Shown here: positions 36,978-47,574 of the stretch, one piece after another
Position numbering within the stretch: position 1 is the stretch's first letter
Layout: each line of letters starts with the position of its first letter
Assembly: GCA_035635555.1 (NCBI GenBank)
Contig: DASQAT010000035.1
Location: forward strand, 186,001 to 250,000
Length of the DNA stretch: 64,000 nucleotides
From: Candidatus Dormiibacterota bacterium
Lineage (GTDB): Bacteria; Acidobacteriota; Polarisedimenticolia; Gp22-AA2
Direction of reading: 5' to 3'
Program-made: the position numbers and the translations under genes
Notes under the pieces: model-generated
Databases searched by the model: none
The model's input: only the letters and a program-made list of their open reading frames with translations
What the model was told of the DNA's origin: nothing

Positions 36978-37889
36978 GTGCGGCGCCCCGTTCGATGTCT
37001 GGTGATCGCCCTCTGTGTTCTCTCGACCGCCGGCCTGGCGCCGGTCCTGGCCGACCAGGAGGACGACGGCGCGCCGGATCCTTCCCGCGGCCTGCCCGCC
37101 TACCTCGAGCATTACTCCCGCCCCTTCGTGATCGACGGCCGCGAGTTCAAGTTCACGCAGAAGTATTACTGGCACCGCCTGTTTCATCCCGGGATGAAGG
37201 ACAAGGTCCGGGGCGCGGGAGTCCTGATGGCGTCGTTCGTTCTGGCGACCCGGAAGAACCAGATCCAGGCGGACGTCGCCGAGGACGACACTCCGTCCCG
37301 CGAGCGCTTCTTCAGGCAGGCGCAGGATTTCGGCGGCAAGGGGATCGTTCCGGCGATCGCCGTCCTGTTCTATATCGGCGGCTCGGCCTTTCACGACTAC
37401 CGCGCCAAGGAGACCGGTTTCATGCTGGCCGAGTCGGGACTGTTCACAGGCATCCTCACGGTGACCGGGATGTGGATCCTGAGCGAGGACCGCCCCAGGG
37501 ACGGCGGGCGCCTGCATCCCTTCCAGGGGATCGGTCACGGGGTGTCCGGCCACGCCGCGACGGCCGCCTCGGTCTCGGGCGTGCTGTCGCGCATGTATCT
37601 TCAAGTCAAGCCCGAGGATGGGCGCATCCGAAGGACCTTCAAGTGGATCGGGAAGGGGTTCGCTTACGGCGCGCCTTTGGCGGTGGCCCTCGGGCGCGTG
37701 AACGAGCAGGAGCACTTTCTCTACAGCGCCGTCCTCGGCATGGCGATCGGTTTCTGGAGCAGCAACGCCGTCGCCGACGCTCACGGACTGTACCTGGAAG
37801 GGGGGCGCCCGCGCCTCAGACCGGCGAGCGTCGGGCCGATCCTGGGAGAAGGGGGCGGGGCCGGGGTCGGCGTGCGCTGGGAGTTCTGA
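36978..37889 (+). CDS. PAP2-superfamily-like exported protein, paralogue A
   Basis: 303 residues, GTG start. A signal peptide covers about 1-25. The PAP2-like core has several membrane segments; motif 1 reads SEDRPRDGG, motif 2 GVSGHAATAASVSGVLSRMY and motif 3 GRVNEQEHFLYSAVLG. The active-site His of SGH and the Arg and His of motif 3 are present. The basic residue of KX6RP is Met and the motif 3 Asp is Ser, so phosphatase activity is uncertain. It is strongly similar to the convergent gene at 37892-38875 along its length (e.g. YYWHRL, DYRAKETG, SSNxVADAHGLY). Confidence 0.85.
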   Translation: MRRPVRCLVIALCVLSTAGLAPVLADQEDDGAPDPSRGLPAYLEHYSRPFVIDGREFKFTQKYYWHRLFHPGMKDKVRGAGVLMASFVLATRKNQIQADVAEDDTPSRERFFRQAQDFGGKGIVPAIAVLFYIGGSAFHDYRAKETGFMLAESGLFTGILTVTGMWILSEDRPRDGGRLHPFQGIGHGVSGHAATAASVSGVLSRMYLQVKPEDGRIRRTFKWIGKGFAYGAPLAVALGRVNEQEHFLYSAVLGMAIGFWSSNAVADAHGLYLEGGRPRLRPASVGPILGEGGGAGVGVRWEF

Positions 37890-37891
37890 TC

Positions 37892-38875
37892 TCAGTAGTT
37901 CCAGCGCGCCCCGATGCCGGGCGCGCCCCGGTCGTTCGTGATCGGACCGACGGCCGAGGGCCTGAAGCGCGACGGGGTGCCGTGGATGTAGAGACCGTGG
38001 GCGTCCGCCACGACGTTGCTGCTCCAGTAGCCGATCGAGAGCCCCAGGACGGTGTTGTAGAGATAGTGCTGCTGGTCGTTGACGCGGCCGAAGGCGACGA
38101 TGGCCGGCAGGCCGTACGCGAACCCCTTCCCGATACGTTTCCACACGGCGGCGGCGTGGCTGTCGTCCGGATCGATCTGAAGATACATGCGCGACAGGAC
38201 GCCCGAGATGGAGGCGGCCGTGGCGCTGTGGCCGGAGATGCCGCCGCCGAAGCCGCGGAACGGGTGCAGGCTGCCCCCGTATTTCGGCCGGTCCTCGGCC
38301 AGCACGAAGCGTCCCCCCAGGGTCACCAGGTCGGTCAGAAGGAGGGAGTGGGCGAGCATCACGCCCGTCTCCTTCGAGCGGTAGTCGCGCATCGTCGAGC
38401 CGCCCACGTACATGAGCAGCGCGGTCGCCGGCACGACGATGCCGCCGCCGAGCTTCTGGATCCTCTTCAGCGTGGTCTCATGCTCGAGAGTGGTGTCGCG
38501 CTGCGCCCAGTCGCTCTGGATCTGCTCCTTCTGCGACCAGAGGGCGAACGCCACGGCCAGGACCGCGCCGCCTGTTTTCTTGTCGCTGGTCGTGGGGTGC
38601 GTCAGGCGGTGCCAGTAATACTTCTCCGTGAACGCCAGCTCGCCGGTGTCGATCCGGAACGGGCGCGAGTACCGATCGAGGTAGTCCGGGGCCGCTTCGC
38701 CGCCCTCCTCGCGGACGTCGAACCCCGGCGCCGCCGCGGGATCGCCGGGCTCCGAGGCCCCCGCTCCCGCCACGTCATCGGCGGCACCGTCCATCATGGC
38801 TCCCCATGACGGCGTCAGCCCCTGCAAGGCTCCGACGATCACGACGAGCGCCAGAGGCGCCCGGACCTTCTGCAT
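37892..38875 (-). CDS. PAP2-superfamily-like exported protein, paralogue B
   Basis: 327 residues from ATG 38875, which has a signal peptide (MQKVRAPLALVVIVGALQG). An in-frame ATG at 38938 is less likely because it adds residues ahead of the signal peptide. Motifs: LAEDRPKYGG, GISGHSATAASISGVLSRMY and GRVNDQQHYLYNTVLG. The KX6RP Lys is Arg and the motif 3 Asp is Asn. It is a clear paralogue of the convergent gene at 36978-37889; the two stop codons are 2 nt apart. Lipid or polyprenyl phosphatase activity is the family expectation, but residue changes in both copies make this uncertain. Confidence 0.85.
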   Translation of the reverse strand: MQKVRAPLALVVIVGALQGLTPSWGAMMDGAADDVAGAGASEPGDPAAAPGFDVREEGGEAAPDYLDRYSRPFRIDTGELAFTEKYYWHRLTHPTTSDKKTGGAVLAVAFALWSQKEQIQSDWAQRDTTLEHETTLKRIQKLGGGIVVPATALLMYVGGSTMRDYRSKETGVMLAHSLLLTDLVTLGGRFVLAEDRPKYGGSLHPFRGFGGGISGHSATAASISGVLSRMYLQIDPDDSHAAAVWKRIGKGFAYGLPAIVAFGRVNDQQHYLYNTVLGLSIGYWSSNVVADAHGLYIHGTPSRFRPSAVGPITNDRGAPGIGARWNY

Positions 38876-42382: not shown

Positions 42383-43405
42383 TCAGGAATGATGCCCGGA
42401 TGGATTGCGGAGTCGCAGCGCGCGGACCGCGGTCTTCTGCTCGCGACCACGTGTCGCGGCGCTCGAAAAGAAGCGCCGAATCAGATCCGGATACAGAACG
42501 CGCGCCGCCTGGCCTCCGGGCTCGATCAGATTTTTCGCGGCGTCATAATCGTCGAGCGGGTAGGGACGCTCGAGCGGGACGTTGACGCGGAGGTACTGCT
42601 CCGTATCGAGAAGGCGCAGCGCAATTTCGTGCGAAATTCTCGCCTGCGCGATGAGCATGTGCTCGATGGCCGCCGTCCTCCAGAACCAGACGCCCATGCG
42701 TTTCGCCTTCTCGTAAGGAATGCGCTCGGCCCGCTCTCCGGCGCCGACGGACAGGATACGGATCATCGCGAGCGGCTGACCGAAGTACCGCACGGCCTCG
42801 GTCAGGCCGATGAGCGTCGGATTGTTCGCGAACAGACCTCCGTCCACGTGGCTGTCGCCCTCGGAGACCTGGGTCCCCGGGAAGAAGATGGGGGCCGAGG
42901 ACGACGCCAGCGCCACCTTCCAGGCGGGCTCGTCGCCCGCCGGGACGAGGTCGGCGGCATGCTCGTCCTTCCAGACGCGGGGGTAGGAATTTTCCAGCTC
43001 GTAGGAGGTGACGCAGACGGGCGTCGTCGCGTCGTTCAGGACCTTCGATCCGAAAAACTCCCGGAGGGTCGCGGCGAGCACGCGATTGTCGTACTTGGGA
43101 CGCAGCAGCATGCCGAGCCGCCGTGGCCTGCTGAAGACGAGCCTTCCTTTTTCGAGGAACAGATCCAGCACCGTCCGCGCCGGCGTGCCGTACGCCAAAG
43201 CCAGCGCGATGATCCCGCCCATCGAGGTCCCGACGATGAGATCGAAATGGTCGCCGATCCGACCCCCGCCGAGGTCCTCGAGCGTCGACAGGAAGGATGC
43301 CGTGAACAGGCCGCGGATTCCGCCCCCGTCCAGCGCAAGAACGCGGAACCCGGGGTCTTTCCCCGCGTCGGACGAGTCCTTGAAGCGCAGCGCGGTTCCG
43401 TACAC
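42383..43405 (-). CDS. patatin-like phospholipase
   Basis: 340 residues, GTG start. The oxyanion loop is DGGGIRG, the nucleophile Ser is in GTSMGG and the catalytic Asp in DGGLFANNP. The N-terminus FRVLALDGGGIRGLFTASFL resembles CapV-type patatins of CBASS defence. No cyclic-nucleotide synthase, E1/E2-like or other CBASS gene lies within several kilobases on either side, so a defence role is not supported here. Likely lipid acyl hydrolase; cytoplasmic (no signal peptide). It lies 15 nt downstream of the dehydratase gene on the same strand. Confidence 0.9.
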   Translation of the reverse strand: MYGTALRFKDSSDAGKDPGFRVLALDGGGIRGLFTASFLSTLEDLGGGRIGDHFDLIVGTSMGGIIALALAYGTPARTVLDLFLEKGRLVFSRPRRLGMLLRPKYDNRVLAATLREFFGSKVLNDATTPVCVTSYELENSYPRVWKDEHAADLVPAGDEPAWKVALASSSAPIFFPGTQVSEGDSHVDGGLFANNPTLIGLTEAVRYFGQPLAMIRILSVGAGERAERIPYEKAKRMGVWFWRTAAIEHMLIAQARISHEIALRLLDTEQYLRVNVPLERPYPLDDYDAAKNLIEPGGQAARVLYPDLIRRFFSSAATRGREQKTAVRALRLRNPSGHHS

Positions 43406-43420
43406 GGGATGGACACGCTC

Positions 43421-45463
43421 CTAGACGGCGAACCGCTCCGGGTCCCAGCGCAGGCCGATCTCGGAAGGCGGGGCCATGTAGCCGGCGAGCGCCGACGACG
43501 CGACGACGGCGGGGCTGGCGAGATACCCCTCCCCGCCGACCCCCATGCGGTTCTGCCAGTTGCGGTTGAACGACGTGATGGCGCGTTCTCCCGGCTTCAA
43601 GGCGTCGTCACCCTGGCCGAAGCAGGGTCCGCACCAGGACTGGCGGATTTCGCCGCCCGCGGAACGGAAGACGTCGGCGATCGACTCGTCCCCGAGGCGC
43701 GGATCGGGACGCTCGATCTGCCCGCGCACCGTGCCGCTTCCGGGAAAGACGATGAAATGGACGCTCTTCGGTACGCTCTTCAGTCCCGTCTCCCGGGCCG
43801 CCCGGATTACCAGGGCCGCGCCCAGCAGATCGTCGTAGGAGCCGTTGGTGCACGATCCGATGAGCGCCTTGTCGAACGTCAGCCGCTCGCGCGCCACCTC
43901 GTCCGCGGCGAAAGCGTTCCCGGGACTGAACGGCTTCGCGATCATCGGGCCCACAGTGGTCAGATCGAACGTCTCGTCGATCTCGAAGCGCGCGCCGGTG
44001 CCCGTCAGGAGGGGCGGGTACGGAAGCGCGATCCCGCGCGCGGCGTACCAGCCGTCGGTGATTTCATCGCGGGCAAAGATGCCGTTCTGCGCTTCGGCCT
44101 CCGCCATCATGTTGGCGACCGTGTTCCGGAACGGCATCGGGAGCTGTCGATCGCGGTCCACGAACTCCACCGACATCCCCTGCGCCTGTCTCTCGCCCCA
44201 GCGGCGCAGAAGATCCAGGACGATGTCCTTGCCGCTCACCCAGGGCTGCAGTCGACCGGCGAACACGACGCGACGCTGCCGGGCCAGGGTGACGTAGACG
44301 GCTCCAGTGGCCCATCCGAAACCGAGGGTGGTGCTGCCGACGCCGATACCGACCGCCCCGTACGCCCCGTAGGCCCGGCTGTGCGAGTCGGCGCCGGGGT
44401 AGAAGCCGCCCGGAACGATGAGTCCCTGCTCGGGAAAATAGAAGTGGAATATGCCGTCGCCCGGCGAAGCGTAATGCGGCCTGCCGATCGAGTGCAGACG
44501 CGCGAATTCCTCCGAAATCGACGTCTGCTTCCGATCATCCTCCTTGCCGGTGAACACGAAGTGATCGCTGGCGATCGCCGCCTGGCGGGGGAAAACGGTC
44601 CCCCCTCCCGTGATCGCGTTGAACGTGTGGATGGCGAACGGCGCCGTGCCGTCCGACGCCGGCAGGAGGTCCGCATACAGCCGCAGCGTCGCGCCGGGGC
44701 GGACGCCCGCCTCCCTGTCGACGCGATGCGCCCAGACGATCTGCTCGGTCAGAGAGAGCGTCCGCGCCTCCGTCGCGTCCGGAAATTCGACGCGCGGCGC
44801 GCGACCGGCCGATTCTCGGAACTCACGCCGGCCCATGTCGAAGATGCCTCCGCCCTTCCGTATCTCCTCCTCCTTTTCGGTGAGCGGGAGGGGACGATAG
44901 CGCCGGTCCTGCGTGACGTTCACGATCTCGCGCGTCTCGACGTCGAAGGTGAATTCATCTCCGTCCCGCGCGTCCCGCACAGCGTCCTGTGACTGGACGA
45001 CGTGCAGACCCAGGTTGAGGGCGTTGCGGCGAAAGATGTCGCCCATGTTGCCGCCGCAGACGATCACCATCTCCAGCCCGGCCTCCTCGGCGACGCCCTT
45101 GAGGCCCGCGGGCGACATCTCGCGCGACGAGCCGATGGCGAAGCGATCTCCGGCCACCAGGACGTTCTGCCCCGCGTGGACCCGCTCGCGGAACCCGGGC
45201 ATCAGGTAGCGGAAGGAGCCCGCCTTCCAGCGCTCGTCGAGAGTCGCGAGGCTTTCCGAAACGCAGTCCGAGGAGGGGGTGATCTGATCGGTGTCGATGG
45301 CGTCGAGCTTCTTCCCGGGATGTTTCGGGTCCCAGAAGATGAGCGCCTTCCCGCGCACCAGCCGTCGCCCGCCCTGCGCCGCGCCCGACGCCCGCGGCGC
45401 CCGCGCCGCGATCGTCTCGAGCGTCACCCCCGGCTTCAGTCGCGCCGGCTGTATCGGAGTCAT
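43421..45463 (-). CDS. aconitase-superfamily hydro-lyase with swivel domain first (fused LeuD-LeuC order)
   Basis: 680 residues. The N-terminal about 200 residues are a LeuD-like swivel domain (DTDQITPSSDC, AIGSSREMSPAGLKG). The larger C-terminal part is LeuC-like with the [4Fe-4S] cysteines C538 (IGSCTNGS), C611 and C614 (WCGPC). Fused eukaryotic Leu1 and aconitases have the opposite order. Homology points to isopropylmalate, homoaconitate or a related hydro-lyase; exact substrate undecided. The next upstream gene on the same strand is ilvD, which suggests branched-chain amino acid synthesis, but leuA and leuB are not in the window. A large 408-bp gap separates it from ilvD. Confidence 0.88.
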   Translation of the reverse strand: MTPIQPARLKPGVTLETIAARAPRASGAAQGGRRLVRGKALIFWDPKHPGKKLDAIDTDQITPSSDCVSESLATLDERWKAGSFRYLMPGFRERVHAGQNVLVAGDRFAIGSSREMSPAGLKGVAEEAGLEMVIVCGGNMGDIFRRNALNLGLHVVQSQDAVRDARDGDEFTFDVETREIVNVTQDRRYRPLPLTEKEEEIRKGGGIFDMGRREFRESAGRAPRVEFPDATEARTLSLTEQIVWAHRVDREAGVRPGATLRLYADLLPASDGTAPFAIHTFNAITGGGTVFPRQAAIASDHFVFTGKEDDRKQTSISEEFARLHSIGRPHYASPGDGIFHFYFPEQGLIVPGGFYPGADSHSRAYGAYGAVGIGVGSTTLGFGWATGAVYVTLARQRRVVFAGRLQPWVSGKDIVLDLLRRWGERQAQGMSVEFVDRDRQLPMPFRNTVANMMAEAEAQNGIFARDEITDGWYAARGIALPYPPLLTGTGARFEIDETFDLTTVGPMIAKPFSPGNAFAADEVARERLTFDKALIGSCTNGSYDDLLGAALVIRAARETGLKSVPKSVHFIVFPGSGTVRGQIERPDPRLGDESIADVFRSAGGEIRQSWCGPCFGQGDDALKPGERAITSFNRNWQNRMGVGGEGYLASPAVVASSALAGYMAPPSEIGLRWDPERFAV

Positions 45464-45871
45464 TGTCGCACCCTGTCATTCATGATACTCCACCCTCGCA
45501 GAGTCTCCATCGCGTTGCCGAGCGTGTTGCGCGCGATTCATGCCGCGCCACGCGGTCGTGTGCGCAAACGTGGACAGATGGCGTCGCGCGGTGCGTCAAT
45601 TTCTTGAACGGCAGGCTCTGCGTCGGTACTTGATTGTCGCATGCGCGAAAAGTTTCTCTGCTGGCCGCCCCGGTGGAGAGCGGCCGCGGCCCCGCCCGCG
45701 CGGCCGTGTGAGACCTCGCGCCGGGGCCCCGCCGCGCGGAATTCGCGCGGTGGGCGGCACGAGGCGAACCGAGGGGAGGCTTGCGCGAGCAAGCCGGACC
45801 CGTGCCGCGCGGGCGGGGCCGCGGCCGCTCTCCACCACGTGGGCGTGAAGCAGAAAGAGAGGGGGCCGCCT
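45464..45871. other. 408-bp intergenic gap with no supported gene
   Basis: It lies between ilvD and the LeuD-LeuC-like gene, both minus strand. It contains the 33-bp inverted repeat at 45672-45836. The first 200 bp nearest the dehydratase (45464-45671) contain only a TTGACG hexamer without a good -10. Short open frames exist on both strands but show low-complexity Arg/Pro/Ala content and no start-site support. Confidence 0.6.
45672..45836. repeat. perfect 33-bp inverted repeat with 99-bp structured loop
   Basis: Arms 45672-45704 and 45804-45836 are exact reverse complements over all 33 bases (beginning GGTGGAGAGCGGCCGC, ending GCGGCCGCTCTCCACC). The loop contains a smaller perfect hairpin GCTTGC-GCGA-GCAAGC (45779-45794), whose loop is a GNRA tetraloop if transcribed on the plus strand, and a palindromic CCGCGCG-GAATTC-type stretch. 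No target-site duplication or transposase is seen. An RNA element, attenuator or MITE-like repeat are possible. Confidence 0.85.
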
Positions 45872-47551
45872 TCAGGTGTTGAAGCCGGTGACCGCCCCCT
45901 CGCTGGCCGACGAGACCAGCCGGGCGTACTTGGCGAAGACACCCCGGGTGTACCGCGGGGCGGGCGCCGTCCACGACCGCAGGCGGGCGCTCATCTCGTC
46001 GTCGCCGACCTCGACATCGAGACGGCGGCCCTCGACGTCGAAGACGATCGTGTCCCCTTCGCGGACGGCGGCGATCGGTCCCCCGCGCGCCGCCTCGGGG
46101 GCGACGTGGCCCGCCATCAGACCGTGCGTGGCTCCGGAGAAGCGGCCGTCTGTGAGCAGGGCGACCTGGTCGCCGAGACCCTGGCCGACGAGCGCCGCCG
46201 TCACCGCCAGCATCTCGCGCATGCCCGGCCCGCCGCTCGGCCCCTCGTAGCGGATCACCAGCACGTCCCCCGGTGCTATCGTCCGGGCCTGCACGGCCGC
46301 GAAGGCGTCCTCTTCGCGGTCGAAGACGCGCGCCGGGCCGCGATGCTTCGTGCGCGAGTGGCCGGCCATCTTCACGACGCACCCTTCCGGGGCGAGATTC
46401 CCCCTCAGGATCACCAGGCCCCCGGTCGCCTGGATCGGGTTGGAAAGCGGGCGGACCACGATCTGTCCGGCCGACTCGCGCGCCTCCTTCGCCTCGTCGC
46501 CGATCGTCCGGCCGCTGACCGTCATCTCCTCCGGGCTCAGAAGACCCGCCTCGCGGAGTCGTTGCGCCAGAAGACGCGTCCCGCCGGCGCGCTGCATGTC
46601 GTGGGCGACGAACCGGCCGCCCGGCTTGAGGTCGGCGAGAAGTGGAGTCTTCGCGCTGAGGCTGTCGAAATCGTCGATGACGAGCGGCACGCCGCTCTCG
46701 CGCGCCAGGGCGAGCAGGTGCAGGACGCCGTTCGTCGAGCCACCCGTGGCGGCGACGGAGACGATGGCATTCTCGAACGCGGCCCGCGTCAGGATCCGGC
46801 TGGGGCGCAGGTCGTTCTTGAGCGCCTCCATCACCAGCCGCCCGGCCAGACGCGCCACGTCCTTCCGCGCCGGGTCGGTCGCCGGCACTCCGGCGCTTCC
46901 CATCGGCGAGATCCCGAGGAACTCGAGCGCCGTCGCCATGGTGTTGGCGGTGAACTGCCCGCCGCAGGCCCCGGCGCCCGGGCAGGCCGCGTCCTCGAGC
47001 TCGCGCAGGTCCTCGAGGCTCATCTTCCCCGAGGCGTGCGCGCCGACCGCCTCGAACACGTCCTGGATGGTGACATCGCGCCCCTGGAAGCTCCCGGGGG
47101 CGATCGATCCCCCGTACAGCACCAGCGACGGCAGGTCCAGCCGCGCCAGGGCCATCGCCGTCCCGGGAATCGTCTTGTCGCATCCGGCGAGCGCCACCAC
47201 GGCGTCGAACAGGTGTCCGCGCGCCACCAGCTCGATCGAGTCGGCCACGATCTCCCGGCTGACGAGGGACGCCTTCATCCCCTCGGTCCCCATGCTGATT
47301 CCGTCCGACACGGCGATCGTGTTGAACTCGATCGGCGTCCCCCCCGCCGCCCGGATCCCCTCCTTCACGTAGTCGGCCAGGTCGCGCAGGTGGATGTTGC
47401 AGGGCATCACCTCGATCCAGGTGTTCGCCACGCCGACGAGCGGCCGGGACAGCTCTTCGTCGTCGAAGCCGACCGCCTTGAGCATGGCGCGCGCCGGCGC
47501 GCGGTCGAAACCCCGCAGGAGGGCGGCCGAGGGACGTTGCGCCTGCGTCAT
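45872..47551 (-). CDS. ilvD: dihydroxy-acid dehydratase
   Basis: 559 residues, normal length for IlvD. It forms 2-keto acids of valine and isoleucine biosynthesis. Fe-S cysteines: C51 (MPCNIH), C124 (AGCDKTIPG) and C196 in CPGAGACGGQF (with C190 nearby). GRFSGATHG and the end EGAVTGFNT are signatures. The start at ATG 47551 is 90 bp from the divergent PLP enzyme. A TACAAT -10 element lies at 47575-47580. The next gene in the direction of transcription is the LeuD-LeuC-like enzyme after the 408-bp gap. Confidence 0.97.
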   Translation of the reverse strand: MTQAQRPSAALLRGFDRAPARAMLKAVGFDDEELSRPLVGVANTWIEVMPCNIHLRDLADYVKEGIRAAGGTPIEFNTIAVSDGISMGTEGMKASLVSREIVADSIELVARGHLFDAVVALAGCDKTIPGTAMALARLDLPSLVLYGGSIAPGSFQGRDVTIQDVFEAVGAHASGKMSLEDLRELEDAACPGAGACGGQFTANTMATALEFLGISPMGSAGVPATDPARKDVARLAGRLVMEALKNDLRPSRILTRAAFENAIVSVAATGGSTNGVLHLLALARESGVPLVIDDFDSLSAKTPLLADLKPGGRFVAHDMQRAGGTRLLAQRLREAGLLSPEEMTVSGRTIGDEAKEARESAGQIVVRPLSNPIQATGGLVILRGNLAPEGCVVKMAGHSRTKHRGPARVFDREEDAFAAVQARTIAPGDVLVIRYEGPSGGPGMREMLAVTAALVGQGLGDQVALLTDGRFSGATHGLMAGHVAPEAARGGPIAAVREGDTIVFDVEGRRLDVEVGDDEMSARLRSWTAPAPRYTRGVFAKYARLVSSASEGAVTGFNT

Positions 47552-47574
47552 CGCGGATTCCACATGCGGCCGAC

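What the first reader, a model, noticed from the sequence alone, without database searches (positions are those of the whole stretch)
45672..45836. Perfect 33-bp inverted repeat with nested hairpins in the ilvD-dehydratase gap
Exact arms enclose a 99-bp loop that itself contains GCTTGC-GCGA-GCAAGC with a GNRA-type loop on the plus strand. No transposase or target duplication. The position between ilvD and the dehydratase start could make it a regulatory RNA or an attenuation element; it could also be a MITE or a barrier to transcription.
Basis: seen in the sequence. Interest (0 to 1): 0.6.

Follow-up and report, generated by a model that had tools for sequence, protein, structure and literature searches.

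The report
Dispersed hairpin repeat with self-matching arms
The perfect 33-bp inverted repeat next to ilvD is one of 16 copies in this soil acidobacterium of an apparently undescribed family of dispersed hairpin elements, whose arms change rapidly from copy to copy yet stay complementary, which makes it a natural case for studying how long palindromes are kept perfect.

Summary
In detail: perfect 33-bp arms, 45672-45704 and 45804-45836, around a 99-nt loop; simulated windows reach 16 bp at most. It is not specific to ilvD. It is one of 16 copies in this 4.28-Mb genome and about 100 in eight genomes of one Acidobacteriota (gp22) family; none were found outside that family. Each copy has a conserved ~99-nt core folding as a three-way junction (hairpins A and B) inside a stem of about 31-34 bp. 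Arm sequences differ strongly between copies while pairing holds: two copies whose cores are 99% identical differ at 12 arm pairs, every one compensated. Copies are intergenic and often lie in inverted pairs. The element's 3' end sits a median of 16.5 bp after an opposing gene's stop codon, or just upstream of a co-oriented gene's promoter. At two sites, relatives without the element show no pre-existing palindrome, so the arms arrived with the element. A second family with the same design was found. RAYT, IS110 and reverse-transcriptase genes are absent from most carriers. Best reading: a non-autonomous, MITE/REPIN-like structured repeat, with arms kept matched by template switching and/or selection on a single-stranded form. 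Mobiliser and function are unknown.

The parts
45672..45704 (+). left arm of stem P1 (33 bp, perfect); the inner ~9 bp CCGCGCGGC are shared with close copies, the outer ~24 bp vary between copies
45705..45771 (+). core, hairpin A (conserved GAGACC on the 5' side, GCGAACCG on the 3' side)
45804..45836 (+). right arm of stem P1; its outer end is the element's 3' end, about 35 bp from the stop codon of ilvD (minus strand)
45872..47560 (-). ilvD, dihydroxy-acid dehydratase (opposed gene whose 3' end faces the element's right side); context, not part of the element
43421..45463 (-). aconitase / 3-isopropylmalate dehydratase family gene on the element's left side (5' end facing the element); context, not part of the element

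Best explanation
It is one copy of a dispersed, non-coding, non-autonomous palindromic repeat (works like a MITE or REPIN) restricted, in what was searched, to one gp22 Acidobacteriota family. Shown: the unit is left arm - structured core - right arm, often two units inverted with left ends facing a spacer of 86-340 bp, placed between transcription units. Shown: arms are carried with the element and absent from empty sites, diverge fast, and stay complementary. Inferred: the element spreads by an unidentified trans-acting enzyme; insertions survive only between genes; and the arms are kept identical by replication template switching across the hairpin (one arm copied from the other in blocks, indels included), on top of selection for the folded form. 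The excess of G-T over A-C mispairs on the outward strand suggests that this strand acts single-stranded, most simply as an outward-transcribed RNA.
For: Copies: 16 in G000, 3-40 in each of seven relatives; none in 52 other genomes of the order, class and phylum. Covariation: 19 of 47 core-model pairs have two-sided compensated changes. Arms: in G000, 892 two-sided compensated against 31 one-sided pair differences between copies; pairs with cores 93-99% identical average 9.1 compensated substitutions, 0.43 compensated indels and 0.1 uncompensated changes. Arms have 3.8% non-Watson-Crick pairs, core helices about 8%, although arms change most. Mispairs GT:AC are 39:17 in arms and 93:24 in the core without the most frequent column. 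Empty sites: the L010 locus has 176 bp in G000 where G004 has 31 bp and G003 54 bp, without a palindrome; the uvrA site is empty in G005. Inverted pairs. Placement: right end a median 16.5 bp after stop codons (n=28), or upstream of a sigma70-like promoter in 22 of 51 co-oriented genes, control strand 1 of 51. The template-switch mechanism for hairpin arms is published (PMC8794818; PMC8604942).
Against: No mobilising gene common to the carriers was found, and no target-site duplication or sharp element end was established. Arm comparisons favour well-paired copies because arms were defined by pairing; 19 of 91 copies have arms under 20 bp by that rule. Copies are related, so counts are not independent events and the p-values overstate certainty. 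The covariance alignment leans towards the model and may inflate G-T over A-C in the core. At the uvrA ortholog in G003 the middle of the stem is unpaired, so pairing is not always kept. Ectopic conversion that homogenises cores while arms stay old would also give like cores with unlike arms. No expression data.
Confidence: 0.6

Rival explanations
1. Selection alone: the element encodes a structured RNA (outward strand) and point mutations in the stem are restored by ordinary compensatory mutations; no DNA-level arm copying is needed.
For: G-T over A-C asymmetry in arms and core; column 45-67 of A2 goes GC-GT-AT without AC; conserved junction sequence.
Against: Only 1.7% G-T pairs in arms; 12 compensated and 0 uncompensated arm differences between copies whose cores differ at 1 of 99 positions; compensated indels between arms.
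Confidence: 0.25
2. The core inserts into pre-existing long palindromes such as terminators, so the arms belong to the target site.
For: Outer arms of copies with nearly identical cores look unrelated; arms of the uvrA copies are partly site-specific in two species.
Against: Two empty sites have no palindrome; arm length is narrowly about 31-34 bp; arms in G005 and G002 are clearly homologous across unrelated sites.
Confidence: 0.08
3. Transcription-unit boundary element: a terminator, insulator or 3'-end protector selected at gene ends.
For: Right end 5-62 bp after stop codons in 27 of 28 opposed cases (one overlaps by 7 bp), and directly upstream of promoters; retained at orthologous sites of uvrA (G000/G003) and another gene (G003/G004).
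Against: Orthologous genes do without it; the placement is also what purifying selection against disruptive insertions would leave; the strand asymmetry favours the outward strand, not the strand read from opposed genes.
Confidence: 0.2
4. Locus-specific attenuator or regulatory RNA of the ilvD/dehydratase genes.
For: Position in the gap.
Against: 15 other copies next to unrelated genes; missing at this gap in four relatives.
Confidence: 0.03

Closest known systems
REP / REPIN elements with RAYT (TnpA-REP) transposases (PMC3116915, PMC8266576)
   Same: dispersed, extragenic, palindromic, frequently in inverted pairs, non-coding, many copies per genome
   Different: each unit is about 165 nt, not 20-40; three-way-junction core; fast-changing but matched arms; no Y1 transposase in any of the eight genomes
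MITEs and small mobile repeats of bacteria such as RU-1, RU-2 (PMC2229807, PMC2759123)
   Same: short non-autonomous intergenic repeats that fold as hairpins
   Different: no fixed terminal inverted repeat sequence (arms differ between copies), no target duplication shown, no parental transposon found
Template-switch mutation of hairpins (PMC8794818; inverted-repeat arm homogenisation PMC8604942)
   Same: multi-base compensated changes that keep or make perfect stems
   Different: that work infers events in RNA-gene histories and in the yeast lineage; here a multi-copy bacterial repeat family shows the pattern across many stems; mechanism inferred, not shown

Membership tests
REPIN/RAYT | Palindromic repeat, intergenic, many copies, inverted pairs | tested here: met
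REPIN/RAYT | Y1 (PF01797) RAYT transposase gene in the genome | tested here: not met
   0 of 8 genomes; 5 of 14 control genomes ring
REPIN/RAYT | Short (20-40 bp) hairpin with tetranucleotide tag | tested here: not met
   165-nt units; GGGGAG lies at the foot of hairpin B, but the unit is a three-way junction
MITE | Short non-coding dispersed repeat present/absent at orthologous sites | tested here: met
MITE | Conserved terminal inverted repeats shared with an autonomous transposon | tested here: inconclusive
   inverted arms exist but their sequence is not conserved; no autonomous partner seen; only Y1, IS110 and RT families tested
MITE | Target-site duplication | tested here: inconclusive
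   relatives too diverged to define ends
Known RNA family (Rfam) | Match above gathering score | tested here: not met
Intrinsic terminator | GC-rich hairpin followed by T-tract at gene 3' end | not tested
   position fits for opposed genes; T-tracts were not scored

The most novel reading that the evidence does not exclude
A mobile hairpin element whose long stem is continually rewritten by replication template switching, so that pairing but not sequence is inherited: the stem is a self-repairing palindrome, two unrelated cores (families 1 and 2) use the same architecture, and each unit yields an outward-transcribed structured RNA.
Probability: 0.3. Interest if true: 0.75.

Novelty: new variant of a known kind. 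Interest (0 to 1): 0.55.

Why it matters
Perfect long stems with changing sequence are usually read as proof of a functional RNA. This family gives about 150 stems (91 copies of family 1 and 66 of family 2 examined) of known relatedness in which that reading can be separated from template-switch homogenisation, in bacteria. It also adds two repeat families to a poorly known, uncultured soil lineage and raises the question of what moves them.

Tried and rejected
Insertion into pre-existing palindromes: rejected at two loci. Inverted duplication of host sequence, suggested by the G002 ilvD copy whose arm overlaps the ilvD stop: not supported once a similar arm (CTGAGCG...) was seen at an unrelated locus (C31 of G000). 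RAYT, IS110 and RT mobilisers: absent from most carriers. Rfam: no match. Pattern hits in Streptomyces, Arthrobacter, Natrinema and Solirubrobacterales: chance, no covariance support. Phages, plasmids, viral contigs: none. Degenerate family-2 partner in the window at about 45530-45600: suspected by eye, not significant (E 0.19 with filters off; none).

Full report
What is there. The inverted repeat is exact at the stated coordinates and far beyond chance. The neighbours are ilvD, ending about 35 bp to the right, and an aconitase-family gene to the left, both on the minus strand. Both strands fold with z about -11.

It is a repeat family. A search of the window's own genome found strongly similar copies on many contigs. 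Aligning 13 of them shows a conserved core of about 99 nt that folds into a three-way junction closed by the arms, with 19 of 47 pairs compensated on both sides in at least one copy. A covariance model finds 16 copies in G000, 3 in G001, 14 in G002, 14 in G003, 4 in G004, 40 in G005, 4 in G006 and 7 in G007 at E up to 0.1, and nothing at E up to 0.001 in 52 further genomes of the order, class and phylum. A pattern scan of named genomes hits MAGs titled Acidobacteria gp22 AA2, AA3, AA4 and two groundwater sets; the few other hits are chance. That gp22 corresponds to class Polarisedimenticolia is from my own knowledge.

The arms. Arm lengths cluster at 31-34 bp. Between copies the arms differ greatly but in step: 892 two-sided compensated differences against 31 one-sided in G000. 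Copies C31 and C48, with cores 99% identical, differ at 12 arm pairs, all compensated. In the outer arm the two-sided to one-sided ratio is 28 (G000) or 4.6 (G005), against 0.9 and 0.6 in the core hairpins. The ratio rises with divergence and arms were chosen for pairing, so the safer statement is that arms vary most yet have fewer non-Watson-Crick pairs (3.8% against about 8%). Arms of G005 and of G002 are plainly homologous at unrelated sites, so they travel with the element. Alignments of orthologous sites show arms changed on both sides in place, but also one case (G003, uvrA) with an unpaired middle.

Empty sites. At the L010 locus the relatives G004 and G003 have 31 and 54 bp between aligned flanks where G000 has 176 bp, and G001 has about 20 nt between the conserved GCTACCA and the -10 box TATAAT; none contains a long palindrome. 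At uvrA the element sits just before TTGACA in G000 and G003 and is missing in G005. The ilvD gap lacks it in G001, G003, G004 and G006; G002 has a diverged copy.

Strand. G-T pairs (wobble on the outward strand) exceed A-C pairs: 39 to 17 in arms, 146 to 24 in the core, 93 to 24 without the most frequent column. Relatedness and the model-fitted alignment weaken this. It points to a function, or transcription-linked mutation, of the outward strand; not shown.

Pairs, second family, placement. Many copies form inverted pairs with left ends facing a spacer. In G003 the partner is a second family with a 61-nt core (TCATG...CTCGAAATC) and mostly 24-30 bp arms that also vary and match; the search tallies 27 matches in G000, 24 in G001, 72 in G002, 33 in G003 and 8 in G004, some of which are the same place on both strands, and none in G005-G007. 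In G002 whole two-hairpin units of 330-455 bp are dispersed. Right ends of family 1 lie a median 16.5 bp from stop codons or upstream of promoters (22 of 51 against 1 of 51 on the control strand); left ends are far from genes. The gene calls there are my own codon-usage scoring, not curated.

Mechanism and verdict. I favour a non-autonomous structured repeat with arms homogenised by template switching plus selection on the fold. Published work argues that template switching can create and maintain hairpin stems (PMC8794818). Mobiliser and cellular role remain unknown; RAYT was tested and not found, so this works like REPINs but is not filed as one.

Noticed in passing
L008 1150-1416 (G000 contig C15, near 9442): A group II intron (RF02001, RF01998) with a reverse-transcriptase ORF (C15:8025-8645) appears to interrupt the right arm of one element copy, whose sequence switches to GTGTGCCGAGC... 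right after GGACCCGTG; this fits the hairpin preference of group IIC introns (own knowledge)..
   Followed up: partly
L233-L272, e.g. L235 605-732: Second family of palindromic repeats with the same design and an unrelated core, found only in this genus among the genomes searched.
   Followed up: yes
L139 428-555 onward (G002 contig C84): A hybrid: family-2 core followed directly by the hairpin A sequence of family 1, suggesting recombination or nesting of cores.
   Followed up: no
L164, between the two copies (G005 contig C127): A near-perfect hairpin with family-1 arms but most of the core deleted.
   Followed up: no
window 42383-43405 (-): Patatin-like phospholipase matching the NCBIfam model CBASS cGAMP-activated phospholipase above cut-off; a partner cyclase was not looked for.
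   Followed up: no
window 43421-45463 (-): Aconitase-family protein with the small-subunit (swivel) domain in front of the large-subunit domain, scoring below the cut-off of every named NCBIfam model.
   Followed up: no
window 37683-38098: A 416-bp imperfect inverted repeat (73%) that appears to be the 3' ends of two convergent paralogous genes.
   Followed up: partly
window 45533-45601: Stretch resembling a decayed family-2 element left of the finding; the match is not significant.
   Followed up: partly
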